A DNA stretch of 64,000 bases from Stigmatella aurantiaca (GTDB lineage Bacteria; Myxococcota; Myxococcia; Myxococcales; Myxococcaceae): positions 124,001-188,000 of the forward strand of contig NZ_FOAP01000007.1 of the NCBI RefSeq assembly GCF_900109545.1, given 5' to 3'. The translations under genes were made by a program, and so were the position numbers. Position 1 is the stretch's first letter. Each line of letters begins with the position of its first letter. The notes under the pieces are model-generated. The model was not told where the DNA came from and made no database searches. It was given only the letters and a program-made list of their open reading frames with translations. Below are positions 17,770 through 39,765 of the stretch, piece by piece.

Positions 17770-17853
17770 GCCCAGGTGGTGGAATTGGTAGACACACTAG
17801 ATTCAGGGTCTAGCGCCTGCAAGGGCATGGAGGTTCGAGTCCTCTCCTGGGCA
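17770..17853 (+). tRNA. tRNA-Leu (anticodon CAG)
   Basis: The acceptor stem GCCCAGG pairs with CCTGGGC, the D-arm contains GGAATTGGTAGACAC, the anticodon arm CTAGA-TTCAGGG-TCTAG gives anticodon CAG, a long class II variable arm follows, and the T-arm contains GGTTCGAGTCC. The discriminator is A73; CCA is not encoded. CUG is the dominant leucine codon in this GC-rich genome. Confidence 0.96.
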
Positions 17854-30670: not shown

Positions 30671-31768
30671 TCAGGTAGGCACGGAATGCGCTCTGGGCAG
30701 GCAGACGCTGAAGCGGCTCCCCTTGCCCAGCTCGCTCTCGGCGAGGAGCGTCCCGCCCAGAAAAGACACGATGGTTTTCACCACGGCCAGACCCACTCCC
30801 CGCCCCGGGGAAAAGTGCTCACTGCGCCTGTACATGTCGAAGATGGCAGGCAGCAAATCCGGTGCAATGCCCCGCCCGGTATCCTCGACCGTGATGCGCA
30901 CGCCGCTGCCCGTCTCGCTGGCCCGGACCCACACCGTCCCCACGGGAGTGTACTTGAGTGCATTATCAACGAGGTTTTGCAGCACCTGTCCCAGCAAGAG
31001 GCGGTCGGTCCTGAGCAAAATCCCGCCGGGAATCTCCTCCTGCAAGCGAATCCCCTTCTCGTCCGCGCGAGGCTGCAGGATGGCCAGAACGTCCTCGGTC
31101 ACCAGAGAGAGGTTCACCTCCTCCGCCTGATACTGAAGATTGCCAGCAAGCGCCGCTTCGGTGGCCAACTGCCCTTCGATGAGCAGCAGCAACCGGCGCG
31201 AGGCACGCTCGATGCGATCCAGGTTCTTGGGTCCCCCCTTGGAGAAGGACTCATCCCTCCGGATGAGTTCGACGCTGGCCAGGATCGTGCTCAGGGGGGA
31301 ACGGAAGTCGTGGACGAGCCGGGCCAGGAAGTCCGACTGCCGGTCCCGGAGCTGCTCCTCCCGGCGCCGAATGTAATGTTCCACCCCTGCCCGGTGCGCT
31401 TGATCAATGGCCCCGTGCAAGGTGCTCGCGGCCGCGTTGTTCAGGACGATGCCGGCCGAGTCCAGGACTCCCAGGAACGCATCCCGGAGCGAGTTGTACT
31501 CTTCTCCTAGCTCGATCAAGCCGTACCCCAGCTTGAGGCGGCTTTCGCCATGCTCTTCAGCGATCTCTCTCGGAATGTCCACGGCGCCATGCCACACCTG
31601 AGCCCGGCCCAGCGCGTTGATGATCTGGTCCACCAAGCCAGGCATGTTGTTCAGGATCGATAGGCGGGAGAGCGACCGCGCAACCGGGCGCTTGCTGACC
31701 CTCTGGAACCACTCCTCGATGATGGCGTCTCGCTGTCGAAGACACTCTGCTGTGACGGAGGGATCCAT
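30671..31768 (-). CDS. cytoplasmic histidine kinase with RsbRD-like sensor
   Basis: A 365-residue soluble kinase. Residues 1-135 form a helical domain resembling the N-terminal region of RsbRD/RsbT co-antagonists (DAIIEEWFQRVSKRPVARSL; YGLIELGEEYNSLRDAFL). The phospho-acceptor helix has FLARLVHDFRSPLSTILAS near 147-165, followed by the N box LVDNALKYTPVGT, VEDTGRGIAPDLL and GRGVGLAVVKTIVSFLGG. No membrane segment, so it senses an internal or protein signal. No response regulator is adjacent. Confidence 0.85.
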   Translation of the reverse strand: MDPSVTAECLRQRDAIIEEWFQRVSKRPVARSLSRLSILNNMPGLVDQIINALGRAQVWHGAVDIPREIAEEHGESRLKLGYGLIELGEEYNSLRDAFLGVLDSAGIVLNNAAASTLHGAIDQAHRAGVEHYIRRREEQLRDRQSDFLARLVHDFRSPLSTILASVELIRRDESFSKGGPKNLDRIERASRRLLLLIEGQLATEAALAGNLQYQAEEVNLSLVTEDVLAILQPRADEKGIRLQEEIPGGILLRTDRLLLGQVLQNLVDNALKYTPVGTVWVRASETGSGVRITVEDTGRGIAPDLLPAIFDMYRRSEHFSPGRGVGLAVVKTIVSFLGGTLLAESELGKGSRFSVCLPRAHSVPT

Positions 31769-34672: not shown

Positions 34673-35059
34673 ATGGCAAACGTCTTCATCTCGCATCGCA
34701 AGGCTGACGACACGCAATCCGAGCGGCTCGCACGTGAGCTCCAGGCCGCCGGACACAAGGTCTGGTTCGACGAGTGGGAAATCAACCTCGGTGACTCCCT
34801 GATTGAGCGGATGAACCAGGGACTTGAGGGCTCGGCCTACCTCGTCCTCTGCTACTCCTCGTCCGGCGTCGATTCTCCGTGGATGTCGCGTGAGTGGATG
34901 TCGGCGCTGGCACGGCAGCTCTCGGGCCATCAGGTCAAGGTGCTGCCCATCCTGCTCACGGGCGGCCAACCGCCCGCCATTCTCGCAGACATCAAATACG
35001 CCGACCTTACGAAGGACTGGAGTCGGGGCGTCGCGGAGCTGCTCCGCGCCATCCGGTGA
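34673..35059 (+). CDS. stand-alone TIR-domain protein, probable NADase effector
   Basis: A 128-residue protein that is nothing but a TIR domain. The first strand is ANVFISHRKADD (2-13), the BB-loop region is KVWFDEWEINLGDSLIERM (29-47), and the candidate catalytic Glu lies in SPWMSREWMSAL near residue 74, the position of the catalytic glutamate of SARM1-like TIRs. Bacterial TIRs often cleave NAD+ or make signalling cyclic ADP-riboses after phage sensing. AGGGAG is 12 bases before the ATG. The gene is 4 bases upstream of the NACHT gene, so the two act together. Confidence 0.85.
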   Translation: MANVFISHRKADDTQSERLARELQAAGHKVWFDEWEINLGDSLIERMNQGLEGSAYLVLCYSSSGVDSPWMSREWMSALARQLSGHQVKVLPILLTGGQPPAILADIKYADLTKDWSRGVAELLRAIR

Positions 35060-35063
35060 GCCC

Positions 35064-38000
35064 ATGAAACGGCAGGTTTTCATCGCGCACGCCGAGGGCG
35101 AGCAGGCCGAGGCCGAGAAGCTGGCCAAGCGGCTTCAGAAGGCCGGATACGAGGTCGCCCACTACGGCACGGTGTTGGTCGGGGAGTCCATCGTGGAGGC
35201 GGCTCAGAAGGTCCTTGAGGTCGGCGGCCCCGTGGTCATCTGCGCGACGGTGAGGGCCGTGGGCACGCGGTGGGCGCACCGGATTGCGAACGCTGCTAGG
35301 ACGAGCACGCACGGACATGTCTTCGTCGTCCAGATGGAGGAAGAGGCCTTTGTCGAGTCCATCTCCTTGGGCGAGAAGGTGGCCACCTGGTGGAAGGACC
35401 CGGCGGCCGCGGCGCGCCAGCTTCTGGAGTCGCTGCAGCGCTACTACCCGCTCACGGAGGACTCCGCGGCGGCGGCGCTGCTGCACGACGCGGAGCGGCG
35501 GTATCGCCAGCTCGCGCTTGAGGCGTGCGACATCATCAACCTCTCAAATCTGCCCGAGGGCGAGCGGTACATCGCCACCCGGAAGCTCGAACTGCGCAGG
35601 TTGTATGTTCCCCTGCGCGTCAAGGTGGCAGTGCCATCCGAGGACGAGTTGTCGCAGGCGCGAATGGAGGCGCTTGAGCGGCAGCGCGAGGCGTGGATGT
35701 CGGGGGGTGCGCCGACTGACCTCGCCCAGGAGCGCTTCCCGGTGGGAGAGCGGCTCGCGCGGAGCGGGCGGCTCGTCGTGCTTGGAGACCCGGGGGCGGG
35801 CAAGTCCACGCTGCTTCGCTGGCTTGCGACCGCCTACATCCTGCGATTGAAGGAGGACGTGGAGTGGAAGGACCTGCCCGACATCGCGACCCTTCCAGCC
35901 CGGGAGTGGCTGCCGATTCTCATCCGGTGCCGTGACCTCGATCCTCGCACCATCGGGGGGCCGCTGGACGACGTCCTGCGGCACACGCTCCGCAAGTCGG
36001 AGATGTCCGAGGAGGAGTCCGAGTCCCTGCGCGCGGTCCTCCGCCACAAGTTGGCCGAGGGCCAAGCGCTGCTGCTCATCGACGGCCTCGACGAGATTTC
36101 CGAGACAGGCGCGCGCATTCGCTTCTGCGAGCAGGTCGAGCAGATTCACCGCGCGTTTCCGGCCGCGCCCATCGTGGTGACCTCGCGCATCGTGGGTTAC
36201 CGGGAGCTGGGCGGCCAGCGCATCGGCCGCGGCTTCGAGCACGTGACCGTGGACGACCTGTCCCCCGAGGACAAGGACGACTTCGTGCACCGCTGGTGCG
36301 CGGTGACCGAGCCTCCCGAGCGCCGCGCCACCACCGTCCAGGAGTTCATCCGGGACATCCACAGCACCGACCGCATCGAGCACCTCACGGGCAATCCCAT
36401 GCTGTTGACCACCATGGCGCTGGTCAAACGCAAGGTGGGCAAGCTGCCCAGGCGCCGGGCCGATCTCTACTGGGAAGCCGTGCAGGTGCTGCTCAATTGG
36501 CGCAGCGCCGAGACGGAGGACCCGCTCGCACTCTGGGAGGCCCTCCCTCAGCTCGAGTTCCTCGCATACGCGATGTGTGAGCGCGGTGTGCAGCGGCTCC
36601 GGAGGGATGAGGTGATGCGGCTGCTCGACCAGATCCGGGACGAGTACCCGAACCTCCACGCGGTGCGCAATCACACCCCGGACCAGTTCCTGAAGCTCAT
36701 CGAGCGCCGCACGGGCATCCTGGTCGAGTCCGGCCACGAGAAGCACCTCGGGATGACCGTGCCCATCTATGAATTCCGCCACCTGACCTTCCAGGAGTAC
36801 CTGGCGGCGCGAGCACTTGTGGAGCGCTGCTTTCCTCACGCGCCGATGCTCCCCCTGGCGAAATATCTCGCGCCCCTGGCCAGCAAGTTCGAGTTCACCG
36901 AATCGCCCGAGCCGACCATTCGCTGGACCACGAACTGGCCAGAGGTACTCCGCCTGTGTGTGGCCATCTGCCTCAATGACGATGTCGACAAGGCGCTCCT
37001 GGCCATCCTTGAGCCGCTGCCAGGGGAGAATCCAGAGCTGACCACTTCGATGCGAGCACTCCAGGCCGCGGCGTGTCTTGAGGACGAGCCCAACGCCTCG
37101 GACGAGGTCGCGCGAAAGATCCTCCTGCGGCTGACAAGCCAGATCGAGTCTCACAATGAGAATGAGATAGGCACCTGGGGTTGGCAGCGGATGTTCTCCC
37201 CCTTGTGGGAGACCCGTTGGGCCGGGGAGTTGATGCGCTCCTTTGCGCACGAGTTCCAGCGCAGGGACCCGATTGCCCGGAGTTTCATCTGGGAGATTTG
37301 GCACGGCTATTATGTGACCTGGTCCACGCCCGGGGAGGAGCCGTCCCGCGTCAATTTCACGCCCTACCTCTCCAGCCTCTCGGCTTCCGACGATCTTGAG
37401 GTCATCACGGCGGCAAGGAGACTGTCGAACACGCGGTGGCACTCTGCCGGCTCGCTTCAATCCATTGATGGCGACGTGTTGGTTGCACTCGTCGAGCGAG
37501 GAGGCGCGGTGTCCGACGCGGCTGCCAGGACGCTCTCCTCCCTTTGGTTCATGGACGCGCCCAATCCCATATGGCGACCAACTCCTGCCCAAGTGGAGCG
37601 ACTCCTTTCGGTGCTCGATACTGAGGCCGTGGATGTAGGGGCGGCGATCCACCTGATGAATTTCCTAGGCCGCTACGGTGTACGGGCCGCTGTCGCGCCT
37701 ATCATTTCCAGGCTGAAACACGATGAGCCGATGGTTCGGCGTGAGGCTGCTACCGCCCTGGGCGAACTCCGGGATGCAAGAGCTTTGGAACCCCTGCTGC
37801 AATCCACCCGGGATACCGAGGCGATGGTGCGGCAGGAAGCAGCCACGGCACTGGGGAAGGTTGCCGAACCAGCGGCAGTGGGTGCCCTGCACGCGATGCT
37901 CCAGGAGCCGATTCATACAGTGCGGGCCGCCGCCGCTGGGGCGCTCTGCGCGTTCCAGGGGCCGGAAGCACGCGCCGCCTTACGAGACGCCGCAAAGGAC

Positions 38001-38798
38001 CCCATCGAGGATGTGCGACGTGAGGTGCTCTGGCGTTTGAGTGCGCGCAAGAGCCCGGACGACGCAGAACTGCTGGTGTTGTTCCTGGATGACCCGTACA
38101 TGCGCGTCCGCTGCGAGGCCGCGCGCAGCCTGGGGTCGATGAGAGAGCGCATGGCGGTGGAGCCGCTGCTGGATCTACTCAGGCAGCGGCGGGCACCGTT
38201 GAACGACGACGACTTCATCCCCATGTCGAATCGTGGGCATGGATTCTTCGCCGGGCCCTTCATGGACGAGCGCCTTCCATTGGTGGAGGCCGCGCTTGCG
38301 TTAGGGGAAATCGGGGACCAGCGCGCCATCGCTCCCCTGCGTGCGATTCACGACGAGGTCGATGCCGGGGTTCGGCCGGCCATCATTCACTCCCTTGGAA
38401 TGCTTGGCGGTGGGTGCACCATCGAGTGGCTACTTCCCATGCTCCAAGCTCCCGAGTCGCCCATCCAACTGGCTGCCGCGGAAGCCCTGGCGCGACTGGG
38501 TGACGAGCGGGGGCGGGAGTTGCTGCTCCAGAAACTCGCGTCCGACTCGGCCCAGGAGCGCACCTCTGCCCTTGAGCTCCTCGCGGGCCTCTACCAGAAG
38601 CACGAGGTGGACCTTCGTCTACTGCTGATTTTTGAATACCGGGAAACAGTGTTCATGGACCCTGCCGAGGTCGTCGATGAAGCACGGCTGCAGCAGCTCC
38701 TGGAGCAGATGGAGATTGCGCCGGACGAAGCGCGCCGGGGATTCGAGGCCCTTACCCAGCGAATACCGCTCAAGCTGAAGTGGCAGCTCCAAGCCTGA
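35064..38798 (+). CDS. TIR-like / NACHT / HEAT-repeat STAND NTPase (bacterial NLR-like)
   Basis: 1244 residues. Residues 1-125 form a second TIR-like domain (QVFIAHAEGEQ, GESIVEAAQKVLE) in which the catalytic Glu position appears replaced (RWAHRI). A linker with NLSNLPEGERYIATRKLELR (159-178) leads to a NACHT ATPase: Walker A GDPGAGKS 241-248, Walker B LLLIDGLDE 336-344, sensor VVTSR near 371-375, and winged-helix features to about 600 (FRHLTFQEYLAARAL). From about 850 onward HEAT/PBS-type repeats (VRREAATALGELRDARALEPLL) form a likely ligand sensor. Bacterial NACHT proteins are known anti-phage sensors. I chose the ATG at 35064; the frame extends upstream but overlaps the TIR gene. Confidence 0.88.
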   Translation: MKRQVFIAHAEGEQAEAEKLAKRLQKAGYEVAHYGTVLVGESIVEAAQKVLEVGGPVVICATVRAVGTRWAHRIANAARTSTHGHVFVVQMEEEAFVESISLGEKVATWWKDPAAAARQLLESLQRYYPLTEDSAAAALLHDAERRYRQLALEACDIINLSNLPEGERYIATRKLELRRLYVPLRVKVAVPSEDELSQARMEALERQREAWMSGGAPTDLAQERFPVGERLARSGRLVVLGDPGAGKSTLLRWLATAYILRLKEDVEWKDLPDIATLPAREWLPILIRCRDLDPRTIGGPLDDVLRHTLRKSEMSEEESESLRAVLRHKLAEGQALLLIDGLDEISETGARIRFCEQVEQIHRAFPAAPIVVTSRIVGYRELGGQRIGRGFEHVTVDDLSPEDKDDFVHRWCAVTEPPERRATTVQEFIRDIHSTDRIEHLTGNPMLLTTMALVKRKVGKLPRRRADLYWEAVQVLLNWRSAETEDPLALWEALPQLEFLAYAMCERGVQRLRRDEVMRLLDQIRDEYPNLHAVRNHTPDQFLKLIERRTGILVESGHEKHLGMTVPIYEFRHLTFQEYLAARALVERCFPHAPMLPLAKYLAPLASKFEFTESPEPTIRWTTNWPEVLRLCVAICLNDDVDKALLAILEPLPGENPELTTSMRALQAAACLEDEPNASDEVARKILLRLTSQIESHNENEIGTWGWQRMFSPLWETRWAGELMRSFAHEFQRRDPIARSFIWEIWHGYYVTWSTPGEEPSRVNFTPYLSSLSASDDLEVITAARRLSNTRWHSAGSLQSIDGDVLVALVERGGAVSDAAARTLSSLWFMDAPNPIWRPTPAQVERLLSVLDTEAVDVGAAIHLMNFLGRYGVRAAVAPIISRLKHDEPMVRREAATALGELRDARALEPLLQSTRDTEAMVRQEAATALGKVAEPAAVGALHAMLQEPIHTVRAAAAGALCAFQGPEARAALRDAAKDPIEDVRREVLWRLSARKSPDDAELLVLFLDDPYMRVRCEAARSLGSMRERMAVEPLLDLLRQRRAPLNDDDFIPMSNRGHGFFAGPFMDERLPLVEAALALGEIGDQRAIAPLRAIHDEVDAGVRPAIIHSLGMLGGGCTIEWLLPMLQAPESPIQLAAAEALARLGDERGRELLLQKLASDSAQERTSALELLAGLYQKHEVDLRLLLIFEYRETVFMDPAEVVDEARLQQLLEQMEIAPDEARRGFEALTQRIPLKLKWQLQA

Positions 38799-38960: not shown

Positions 38961-39116
38961 CCGGTACCAAACGGGTACCAAATCCAGCGAACGCGCCTGA
39001 ACGTCACTGAACGCCGCCGGACAGAAAAATGCCCTGCTTCCGCGGACTTGGGAAGCAGGGCGAGCGGCCCCGGCTGGAATCGGACCAGCGGCCTGCTGTT
39101 TAGGAAACCGCCGCTC
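38961..39116 (+). repeat. right copy of composite direct repeat, with tRNA-Arg(CCT)-like 3' fragment
   Basis: Two GGTACCAAA-type boxes (38963-38983), CCAGCGAACGCG (38984-38995) and TGAACG recur as in the left copy. TTAGGAAACCGC is at 39100-39111, exactly 4800 bases from the left one. On the minus strand 39111-39064 reads as the anticodon loop to T-arm and acceptor of a tRNA (loop TTCCTAA, T-arm GCTGG-TCCGATT-CCAGC, acceptor CGGGGCC). It is a 3' fragment, as expected at an integration site. Confidence 0.6.
39024..39061 (-). terminator. rho-independent terminator behind the tRNA-Arg-like fragment
   Basis: GCCCTGCTTCC (39031-39041) pairs with GGAAGCAGGGC (39051-39061); on the minus strand the stem runs into ATTTTTC. 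This is the natural order tRNA end then terminator, and it also ends the integrase transcript. Confidence 0.75.
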
Positions 39117-39765
39117 AACGCAGGGTGGGGATCTTCGCCGGAACGGCGTGCGTCGCGTAGAAGCGCCGCGTGGTGCTCGAGCTCTTGTGGTTAAGGAACG
39201 CCGCGACCGAGGCTGGGGCCGCGCCCTTCTCAATGGCCCAGGTGGCGATGGAGTGCCGGAACCGACCCGGCGTGAAGGGCGGGATGCCCGCCGCCTTGCA
39301 GGCCGCGTTGACCGCCATGCCGTACTTCTCGCGGCCGAAGGTACCCCGCTCCAGCAGCCGCTTCCCGGCCTCCAGCACGTCGGCGGACACGGCAGCACGC
39401 AAGGGCTCGCCACTCTTCGTCTGCGGGCACACCAACACGCCCGCGACACCTTCGGCCTCGCCCCGGTACGGCTCCACGCTGCCCATCTTAGCGAAGCGCA
39501 CCAGCTCGGTGACGTGCCAGCCGGTGCCAGCCTGCACGTCCATCTCGTCACGCCAGTAGGGCGCCAGGTGCTCACGAACTAAGAGGTAGTGCTCCCGGGG
39601 AATTACCTTGTCGCGCTTCCACTGCTCGGGCCGCGCCTGGAGCACCACCAACGTCTGGAACGTCGGGTCCTCGTTCACCGAGAGCAGGTGCTTCTCCTTC
39701 CACAACCAAGAGTAGAGGCTCTTGAGGACCGCGATCTGGTGGGAGGTTGCACATATTTTGCCCAC
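39115..39765 (-). CDS. short atypical tyrosine recombinase (integrase)
   Basis: A 216-residue integrase catalytic domain. Conserved parts are TGWHVTELVRF (box I, normally TGLRxxEL, so the first catalytic Arg appears replaced by His), TPGRFRHSIATWAIEKG (box II, with Arg kept but the preceding His changed), VAAFLNHKSSSTTRRFYATH (His and nucleophile Tyr). Only part of the N-terminal core-binding domain is present, so the gene may be truncated at the 5' end. The start GTG at 39765 lies beside a terminator and tRNA relic. The stop codon overlaps the tRNA-like att sequence. Activity is doubtful. Confidence 0.7.
   Translation of the reverse strand: MGKICATSHQIAVLKSLYSWLWKEKHLLSVNEDPTFQTLVVLQARPEQWKRDKVIPREHYLLVREHLAPYWRDEMDVQAGTGWHVTELVRFAKMGSVEPYRGEAEGVAGVLVCPQTKSGEPLRAAVSADVLEAGKRLLERGTFGREKYGMAVNAACKAAGIPPFTPGRFRHSIATWAIEKGAAPASVAAFLNHKSSSTTRRFYATHAVPAKIPTLR

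What the first reader, a model, noticed from the sequence alone, without database searches (positions are those of the whole stretch)
35064..35450. Second TIR-like domain appears catalytically dead
In the N-terminal domain of the NACHT protein the position equivalent to the catalytic glutamate of the stand-alone TIR (SPWMSREW) reads TRWAHRI, with Ile instead of Glu. The fold landmarks VFIAHAEGEQ and GESIVEAA are kept. That suggests an adaptor TIR that recruits the free, active TIR when the NACHT ring assembles.
Basis: inference. Interest (0 to 1): 0.6.

Follow-up and report, generated by a model that had tools for sequence, protein, structure and literature searches.

The report
Catalytically dead TIR paired with TIR
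A bacterial immune-like receptor carries a TIR domain that has lost its catalytic residue and is almost always encoded right next to a separate, apparently intact TIR enzyme, which suggests a bacterial version of the receptor-plus-partner TIR arrangement known from animal and plant immunity.

Summary
The NACHT protein (35064-38798) begins with a TIR domain in which the WxxxE Glu of the upstream stand-alone TIR (E74, codon 34892) is Ile74 (codon 35283). This is not a one-off loss. In 26 homologous N-terminal domains (25 systems; Myxococcota, Cyanobacteriota, Actinomycetota, Gemmatimonadota) the position is I14/L7/V4/T1, never acidic; the neighbouring TIR keeps Glu in 24 of 24. The free TIR gene lies directly upstream in 24 of 25 systems; a 4-nt overlap is possible in 21 of 24. 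The pair is kept while the receptor core changes: NACHT-HEAT, NB-ARC-APAF1_C, or NB-ARC-TPR-pentapeptide. The Glu-less domain is one clade under purifying selection. Best reading: a non-catalytic partner TIR that couples a STAND receptor to a TIR effector encoded in trans. Whether it nucleates, completes the active site of, or represses the free TIR is not settled: no heterodimer could be modelled, and one system (L070) keeps the dead TIR without a free TIR. New variant of a known kind (EAD-like coupling, TLR/MyD88, RRS1/RPS4); my paper searches found no report of it.

The parts
34673..35059 (+). Stand-alone TIR protein, 128 aa, with Glu74 (codon 34892-34894)
   Evidence: PF13676 E 4.6e-31; WxxxE aligns to AbTir/BtTir; AF2 model nearest BtTir Z 13.1, AbTir Z 12.2; Glu in 24 of 24 rows
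35064..35450 (+). Glu-less partner TIR domain, residues 1-129 of the NACHT protein; I74 at codon 35283-35285
   Evidence: PF13676; AF2 pLDDT 79.7, pTM 0.77; VIA Z 13.5 SPARTA TIR, 13.1 RRS1 TIR, 12.0 AbTir; I, L, V or T at residue 74 in 26 of 26 rows
35451..35768 (+). Linker before NACHT (residues about 130-235), conserved in the family
   Evidence: many invariant columns at residues 143-186; a SIR2-NACHT and an Mrr_cat-NACHT relative align to the window protein from residues 96 and 148 on
35772..36299 (+). NACHT NTPase (residues 237-412)
   Evidence: PF05729 E 5.4e-11; GDPGAGKST and LLLIDGLDE read in the protein (that these are Walker motifs is recalled)
37674..38183 (+). HEAT-repeat region (residues about 871-1040), probable sensor part
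   Evidence: PF13646 E 2.1e-53, 7 stretches, best 878-961; outer limits are approximate
35064..38798 (+). Complete TIR-NACHT-HEAT gene, 1244 aa
   Evidence: homologues L035-L040 align over the whole length

Best explanation
The locus is a two-gene STAND (bacterial NLR-like) module. The receptor (NACHT core, HEAT repeats) does not carry an enzyme at its N-terminus; it carries a catalytically dead TIR. The enzyme is the separate TIR made from the gene just upstream. When the receptor detects its trigger and oligomerises, its clustered dead TIRs associate with free TIRs and build or seed the head-to-tail TIR assembly in which NAD+-cleaving TIRs become active. Shown here: loss of Glu in one domain and its retention in the other; adjacency; co-inheritance; purifying selection; retention through receptor-core swaps. 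Inferred: physical TIR-TIR association, activation direction, NADase activity, and the trigger (phage is likely from what is known of relatives).
For: Residue 74: I14/L7/V4/T1 in 26 dead rows (25 systems), E in 24 of 24 free rows. The free TIR lies directly upstream on the same strand in 24 of 25 systems. The dead domain is a single clade, 100/100 support; dead and free distances correlate, r 0.82 over 22 pairs, 0 of 2000 shuffles as high. The pair is attached to three receptor cores: NACHT-HEAT, NB-ARC-APAF1_C, NB-ARC-TPR-pentapeptide. Co-occurrence: of 107 genomes of one cyanobacterial family, 4 have a close free-TIR orthologue (E < 1e-70) and all 4 have the dead TIR; the next TIR scores 1.8e-26. 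Three of these 4 are genomes from which the query alignment was built. dN/dS of the dead domain is below 1 in every listed pair (0.08-0.70). NACHT-core relatives have SIR2 (L098) or an Mrr-type nuclease domain (L099) in the same N-terminal place. Eight neighbouring genes of six loci that I scanned are unrelated to one another, so no third partner was seen. PMC11364022 (passages) and PMC11156904 (section 11) state that TIR active sites span two TIRs.
Against: No interface or activity was tested. L070/L090 keeps the dead TIR (residue I) although the best match to the free-TIR profile elsewhere in its genome is only 1.9e-6, so the dead TIR can have a use of its own there. Whether the dead TIR arose by duplication of the free one is unresolved: it sits on a long branch, and an unrelated TIR-STAND protein (L033) scores as well against the dead profile (1.2e-10) as several of the partner TIRs. 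The dead and free trees disagree on L077 and L064. The whole L092 (L064) and L091 (L063) proteins gave no TIR_2 match at E <= 0.01. Four close pairs have dN/dS of 0.50-0.56. Adjacency and co-inheritance fit repression as well as recruitment.
Confidence: 0.6

Rival explanations
1. The dead TIR is mainly a repressor: at rest it caps the free TIR, which would otherwise self-assemble and be toxic, and the activated receptor releases it, as described for the RRS1 and RPS4 TIRs in plants.
For: RRS1 TIR is among the best structural matches of the dead TIR (Z 13.1); PMC9528088 (passages) describes RRS1-RPS4 TIR contacts that prevent signalling until released. Close free-TIR orthologues were not seen without the dead TIR (4 of 4 have it; 3 of the 4 are starting genomes).
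Against: L070 keeps the dead TIR with no close free TIR to restrain. Single-protein bacterial TIR-STAND systems manage without a separate repressor TIR (recalled).
Confidence: 0.2
2. The dead TIR is a ligand-binding domain: the free TIR acts as the sensor/synthase and makes an ADP-ribose-type signal that the dead TIR binds, which then triggers the NACHT receptor.
For: The dead TIR has its own strongly conserved residues in loop regions (H33, G40, S42, C60, T62, A65, G67, T68, acidic 92/94). L070 keeps the domain without the free TIR.
Against: None of the passages I read describes a signal-reading TIR. The receptor's HEAT repeats look like the sensor, and the N-terminal position holds effector-type domains in relatives.
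Confidence: 0.12
3. The dead TIR still catalyses a reaction, with another acidic residue in the pocket.
For: Conserved acidic positions 13, 92 and 94 lie after the first and fourth strands of the model, that is, in loops that could face the active-site side (inference).
Against: None replaces Glu on the catalytic helix; no coordinates were available to measure distances.
Confidence: 0.05
4. The dead TIR is a decaying remnant of a formerly active effector domain and has no function.
For: It lacks the Glu and other free-TIR invariants.
Against: 25 systems in four phyla keep the domain with I, L, V or T at residue 74; dN/dS is below 1 in all listed pairs.
Confidence: 0.03

Closest known systems
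EAD-coupled bacterial conflict systems (Kaur et al. 2020, PMC7159879; passages read)
   Same: A small domain is fused to the core protein and a second copy belongs to an effector often encoded by the adjacent gene; copies are thought to pair; mostly in multicellular prokaryotes.
   Different: EADs are described as non-enzymatic and the effector is a further domain; here the effector itself is the partner and the receptor copy is an inactivated relative of it.
TLR/MAL/MyD88 TIR adaptors (PMC11394124 abstract and outline; PMC11364022 and PMC9153377 passages)
   Same: A receptor TIR that nucleates the assembly of a partner TIR; PMC9153377 notes that not all TIRs have the catalytic Glu and that TIR-TIR association still matters for them.
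   Different: There the partner TIR is a scaffold; here the partner keeps the catalytic Glu. Nucleation is not shown here.
RRS1/RPS4 paired plant NLRs (PMC9528088 passages)
   Same: Two TIRs of a genetic pair, one regulatory and one active; the dead-TIR model resembles the RRS1 TIR (Z 13.1).
   Different: Both plant partners are full NLRs; here one is a bare 128-aa TIR. I did not verify the state of the catalytic residue in RRS1.
SPARTA TIR-APAZ/pAgo (PMC11156904 section 11 and passages; PMC10474274 passages)
   Same: Best structural match (Z 13.5); the active site spans two TIRs, and two of the four TIR-APAZ/Ago units of the tetramer are described as inactive.
   Different: All SPARTA TIRs are the same protein, with Glu; the sensor is an Argonaute, not a STAND NTPase.
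bNACHT / TIR-NLR defence proteins
   Same: NACHT core with N-terminal TIR and C-terminal repeats.
   Different: Those act as single proteins as far as I recall; Kibby et al. 2023 was not held, so this rests on recall.
Bacterial amyloid-signalling NLR/effector gene pairs (BASS), as summarised in PMC9815663 (passages)
   Same: NLR and adjacent effector gene share a homologous motif that is thought to pass the signal.
   Different: Short amyloid motif there, folded TIR domain here.

Membership tests
TIR domain (PF13676 TIR_2) | profile match above the curated cut-off | tested here: met
   window domain 35.8 bits against cut-off 28; 11 of 12 members of A4 match at E <= 0.01, one does not
TIR NADase | catalytic Glu on the third helix (WxxxE) | tested here: not met
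   NACHT-protein TIR: I74; D/E in 0 of 26 rows. The free TIR meets it in 24 of 24
TIR NADase | NAD+ cleavage | not testable with these tools
   needs an assay of each TIR
STAND/NLR-like receptor (bNACHT type) | NACHT NTPase with C-terminal repeats and an N-terminal effector-type domain | tested here: met
   PF05729 E 5.4e-11, HEAT_2 E 2.1e-53, TIR_2 E 2.1e-7
STAND/NLR-like receptor (bNACHT type) | anti-phage activity | not testable with these tools
   none of the 6 PADLOC models listed for the protein is a NACHT or TIR-NLR system; best NCBIfam NACHT model, EruA, 36.7 bits against cut-off 1000
EAD-type coupling | one copy on the core protein, another in an adjacent gene product | tested here: met
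   24 of 25 systems
EAD-type coupling | domain is non-enzymatic in both copies | tested here: not met
   the adjacent copy keeps the catalytic-type Glu in 24 of 24; activity itself not tested
EAD-type coupling | adjacent copies are each other's closest relatives | tested here: inconclusive
   in 7 of 7 genomes the neighbour is the only other hit of the dead profile at E <= 0.001; but an unrelated TIR (L033) scores as high as several partners, and the tree leaves the origin open
TLR/MyD88-like nucleating adaptor | nucleates assembly of the partner TIR | not testable with these tools
   single-chain prediction only
Thoeris | a further effector gene that reads the TIR product | tested here: inconclusive
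   no shared third gene seen by eye in the gene lists of 14 regions nor among eight neighbouring genes of six loci scanned with Pfam; effectors encoded elsewhere were not sought. Free TIR 35.8 bits against ThcB4 cut-off 220

The most novel reading that the evidence does not exclude
The dead TIR is an obligate half-site donor: the receptor TIR supplies the BB-loop half, and the free TIR the Glu half, of a heterotypic composite NADase site, so the enzyme can only exist on an activated receptor. The dead domain keeps V39, G40 and S42 at the BB-loop/second-helix start in 25 of 25 rows that cover them, while its catalytic helix has been rebuilt. The pair would be a portable 'split enzyme' cassette that bacteria attach to different NLR-like cores.
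Probability: 0.25. Interest if true: 0.78.

Novelty: new variant of a known kind. Interest (0 to 1): 0.62.

Why it matters
If the partner TIR recruits or completes the free TIR, then the receptor-TIR/partner-TIR split known from Toll receptors and paired plant NLRs exists in bacteria as a two-gene cassette that is re-used with at least three receptor cores. It gives a small pair (128 aa and about 130 aa) in which the question of how a non-catalytic TIR controls a catalytic one can be tested directly. It also warns that annotating a STAND protein with an N-terminal 'TIR' as an NADase can be wrong.

Tried and rejected
Chance or alignment error for the missing Glu: rejected, because no alignment I made places an acid there. 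Loss of Glu as a general habit of TIRs in large proteins: not supported, 8 of 8 other TIRs keep it, but 7 of these 8 were found with free-TIR queries and two are near-copies (L085, L089), so this is a weak control; L086 was dropped as not a TIR. Pseudogene: rejected by dN/dS (pairs of the 23 rows then in hand with dS 0.05-1.6). Phage or plasmid origin: the window's dead domain has no tblastn match at E <= 0.01 in 72,556 plasmid records, and no relative of either TIR was confirmed in the viral contigs; the free TIR has 4 distant phage records at 34-38% identity and plasmid hits all below 60% identity (two best-ranked 37% and 39%). A natural fusion of both TIRs, which would have allowed a single-chain model of the pair, was not found; the 388-aa open frame that ends in the free TIR of L064/L092 looks like unused open frame upstream (judged by eye). 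Fold search alone does not single out TIR: response-regulator receivers reach Z about 12 as well, and a sequence profile of the dead domain finds no significant PDB relative (best TIR E 0.11, behind eIF3C at 0.058), so the TIR assignment rests on Pfam and hhalign too. My guess that the gene after the L092 receptor is a DUF4062-type TIR-like protein was not borne out: no Pfam match. Origin by duplication of the free TIR: not resolved. Kibby et al. 2023 was not held. Other papers of which I saw passages or an outline without using them as main evidence: PMC8195603, PMC13174449 (outline), PMC10952713, PMC10907252. Paper searches for a report of such a pair; none of the listings or passages seen describes it, but most subscription papers are not held.

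Full report
OBSERVATION. The window holds two genes on the + strand four bases apart: a 128-aa TIR (34673-35059) and a 1244-aa protein (35064-38798) with TIR_2, NACHT and HEAT matches. In both TIRs a Trp sits at residue 70; residue 74 is Glu in the free TIR (codon 34892) and Ile in the NACHT protein (codon 35283). The free TIR's Glu74 aligns with the Glu of the WxxxE motif in AbTir and BtTir (that this Glu is catalytic is established knowledge, and passages of PMC11156904, place the characteristic Glu on helix C).

RELATIVES. One scan of genome contigs with the whole protein gave seven homologues in Myxococcus, Fischerella, a Nostocales strain, Brasilonema, two Asanoa and a Gemmatimonadota MAG. 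Each of the seven has a free TIR just upstream. A profile of the Glu-less domain (A2) then hit 2 of 386 genomes in the Fischerella phylum at E <= 1e-8 and, at E <= 1e-12, 12 of 217 in the Fischerella family, 6 of 250 in the Asanoa family, 1 of 249 in the phylum of the Gemmatimonadota MAG and 3 of 195 in the window's own phylum. A wider profile (A4) hit 4 of 384 in the class of G641 at E <= 1e-9. These counts include the starting genomes, the sets overlap, and in several of these searches only part of the first-look candidates per genome was scored, so they are lower bounds. Among 98 genomes (the window's own and its nearest relatives) only the window's own has the complete system; G006 has a relic, and a third hit (G047, L033) is another TIR protein. 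The system is rare and scattered.

TALLY. In 26 Glu-less rows, from 25 systems because L065 and L066 are two contig ends of one genome, residue 74 is I 14, L 7, V 4, T 1; residue 70 is W 21, F 3, M 1, L 1. In 24 free TIRs (one of them, L074, partial) residue 74 is E 24 and residue 70 is W 24 (row lists). Some rows are close to each other (for example L061/L067/L068/L069 and L107/L109), so they are not all independent. Eight other TIRs all have Glu at that place (read by eye; a ninth was dropped because the cut-out was not a TIR); seven of the eight were found with free-TIR queries and so lean towards having the Glu.

ARRANGEMENT. In 24 of 25 systems the free TIR gene lies directly upstream on the same strand; a start codon overlapping the free TIR's stop by 4 nt is available in 21 of 24, and the other three starts lie 3, 4 (window) and 14 nt after it. 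The exception is L070: the receptor has about 185 additional N-terminal residues without a Pfam match, no TIR gene was found beside it, and elsewhere in that genome the best match to the free-TIR profile is only 1.9e-6. In the tree it is nested among systems that have the free TIR, so its state is probably a secondary loss. Conversely, among 107 genomes of the Fischerella family, 4 carry a close free-TIR orthologue (E 1.7e-71 to 1.6e-72) and all 4 carry the Glu-less domain; the next best TIR is at 1.8e-26. Three of those 4 are genomes from which the profile was built.

PORTABLE PAIR. The receptor core is not constant. It is NACHT with HEAT repeats in the window and in L091, L107, L108, L113 and L114, NACHT in the contig-truncated L093, NB-ARC with an APAF1_C match in L097, L110 and L111 and NB-ARC alone in the truncated L112, and NB-ARC with TPR and pentapeptide repeats in L092, which reaches the NCBIfam FxSxx_TPR cut-off. 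All of these have the free TIR; for L114 it lies on the other contig of the same genome (L065). In the tree the NB-ARC-APAF rows fall within a cyanobacterial group that otherwise has NACHT, both for the dead domain (12 rows, 96/86) and for the free TIR (11 rows, 99/87). The receptor core was therefore exchanged while the two TIRs stayed together, at least once in cyanobacteria and probably again in L064/L092. I consider this the strongest evidence that the two TIRs work on each other. The two trees do not agree everywhere: L077 lies among cyanobacterial free TIRs but not among cyanobacterial dead TIRs, and L064 changes place with weak support.

EFFECTOR PLACE. The closest NACHT-core relatives outside the family align from residue 96 or 148 onward. 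One has a SIR2 domain at the N-terminus (L098), the other an Mrr_cat restriction-endonuclease domain (L099, PF04471 E 1.3e-9). The N-terminus is thus an effector place, and here it holds a dead TIR with the live one supplied in trans. Eight neighbouring genes of six loci (L036, L037, L038, L041, L091, L096) are unrelated to one another (HemN, PucC, aldo/keto reductase, aconitase, amine oxidase, DUF4440, LysR, YchF), so no third component was seen.

CONSTRAINT. dN/dS for the Glu-less domain lies between 0.08 and 0.70 in the listed pairs. Examples are 0.24 for L036/L037, 0.28 for L039/L040 and 0.34 for window/L035; four close pairs have 0.50-0.56. The domain is maintained. It forms one clade with full support; the free TIRs form one group in 75% of bootstrap trees; dead and free distances correlate with r 0.82 over 22 pairs, with 0 of 2000 shuffles as high. 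This shows co-inheritance, not contact.

STRUCTURE. AF2 with eight sequences each gave pLDDT 79.7 and pTM 0.77 for the dead TIR, and 77.8 and 0.74 for the free TIR. VIA-align places the dead TIR nearest SPARTA TIR-APAZ (Z 13.5, 3.2 A, 128 aligned), RRS1 TIR (4c6s: 13.1, 2.9 A, 125), BtTir (12.2) and AbTir (12.0); receiver domains also reach about 12, so rank alone is not specific. The free TIR is nearest BtTir (13.1) and AbTir (12.2). No complex could be modelled and no coordinates were available for distances.

MECHANISM. PMC11364022 (passages) states that active TIR assemblies are open-ended head-to-tail strands joined through the BB loop and that the active site lies between two TIRs; PMC11156904 (section 11) says the same of the site in SPARTA. 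PMC10474274 (passages) speaks of active and inactive units in one SPARTA tetramer. A Glu-less TIR can therefore still provide the other half of a site, or the seed of a strand. Nucleation of one TIR by another is reported for TLR2 and MyD88 (PMC11394124, abstract and outline); repression of one TIR by its partner is described for RRS1/RPS4 (PMC9528088, passages). I give 0.6 to recruitment or nucleation, including half-site donation, 0.2 to repression, and 0.12 to ligand reading. The dead TIR could do both of the first two in turn.

NOVELTY. Closest in logic is the effector-associated-domain principle (PMC7159879, passages), in which one domain copy sits on the core protein and another on an effector that is often encoded next to it. 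It differs because EADs are described as non-enzymatic, while here one copy is the likely enzyme. [quoted passage not shown] Searches listed no paper that I recognised as describing a Glu-less TIR on a STAND receptor with an active TIR in trans. I call it a new variant of a known kind.

Noticed in passing
L095:6913-7290 (-), genome G006, same genus as the window: A 125-aa relic joins the N-terminal half of the dead TIR (residues 1-46) to the C-terminal half of the free TIR (77-128), in the opposite order to the operon and without a NACHT gene beside it; how it arose is unexplained.
   Followed up: partly
L090:53-3247 (-), genome G750: The one system without a free TIR has about 185 additional N-terminal residues, perhaps helix-turn-helix-like by eye, without a Pfam match.
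   Followed up: partly
window 39115-39765 (-): C-terminal part of a phage-type integrase just downstream of the operon (PF00589 E 1.3e-9), suggesting a mobile-island context; the only tRNA found in the window is far away at 17770.
   Followed up: partly
L098:3635-6490 (+), Agrobacterium fabrum plasmid; L099:2852-5416 (-), genome G078: SIR2-NACHT and Mrr_cat-NACHT proteins share the NACHT core and linker of this family, an example of effector exchange at the N-terminus.
   Followed up: partly
L109:2365-3087 (+), genome G1599: The receptor frame after the dead TIR ends early (241 codons from the domain start), unlike the nearly identical L107 (1255); it may be broken or cut. Not pursued.
   Followed up: no
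L092:2224-3117 (-): A 297-aa protein of unknown family is encoded directly after the NB-ARC-type receptor; no Pfam match.
   Followed up: partly
window 30671-31768 (-): Histidine kinase with an RsbRD_N-type N-terminal domain.
   Followed up: no
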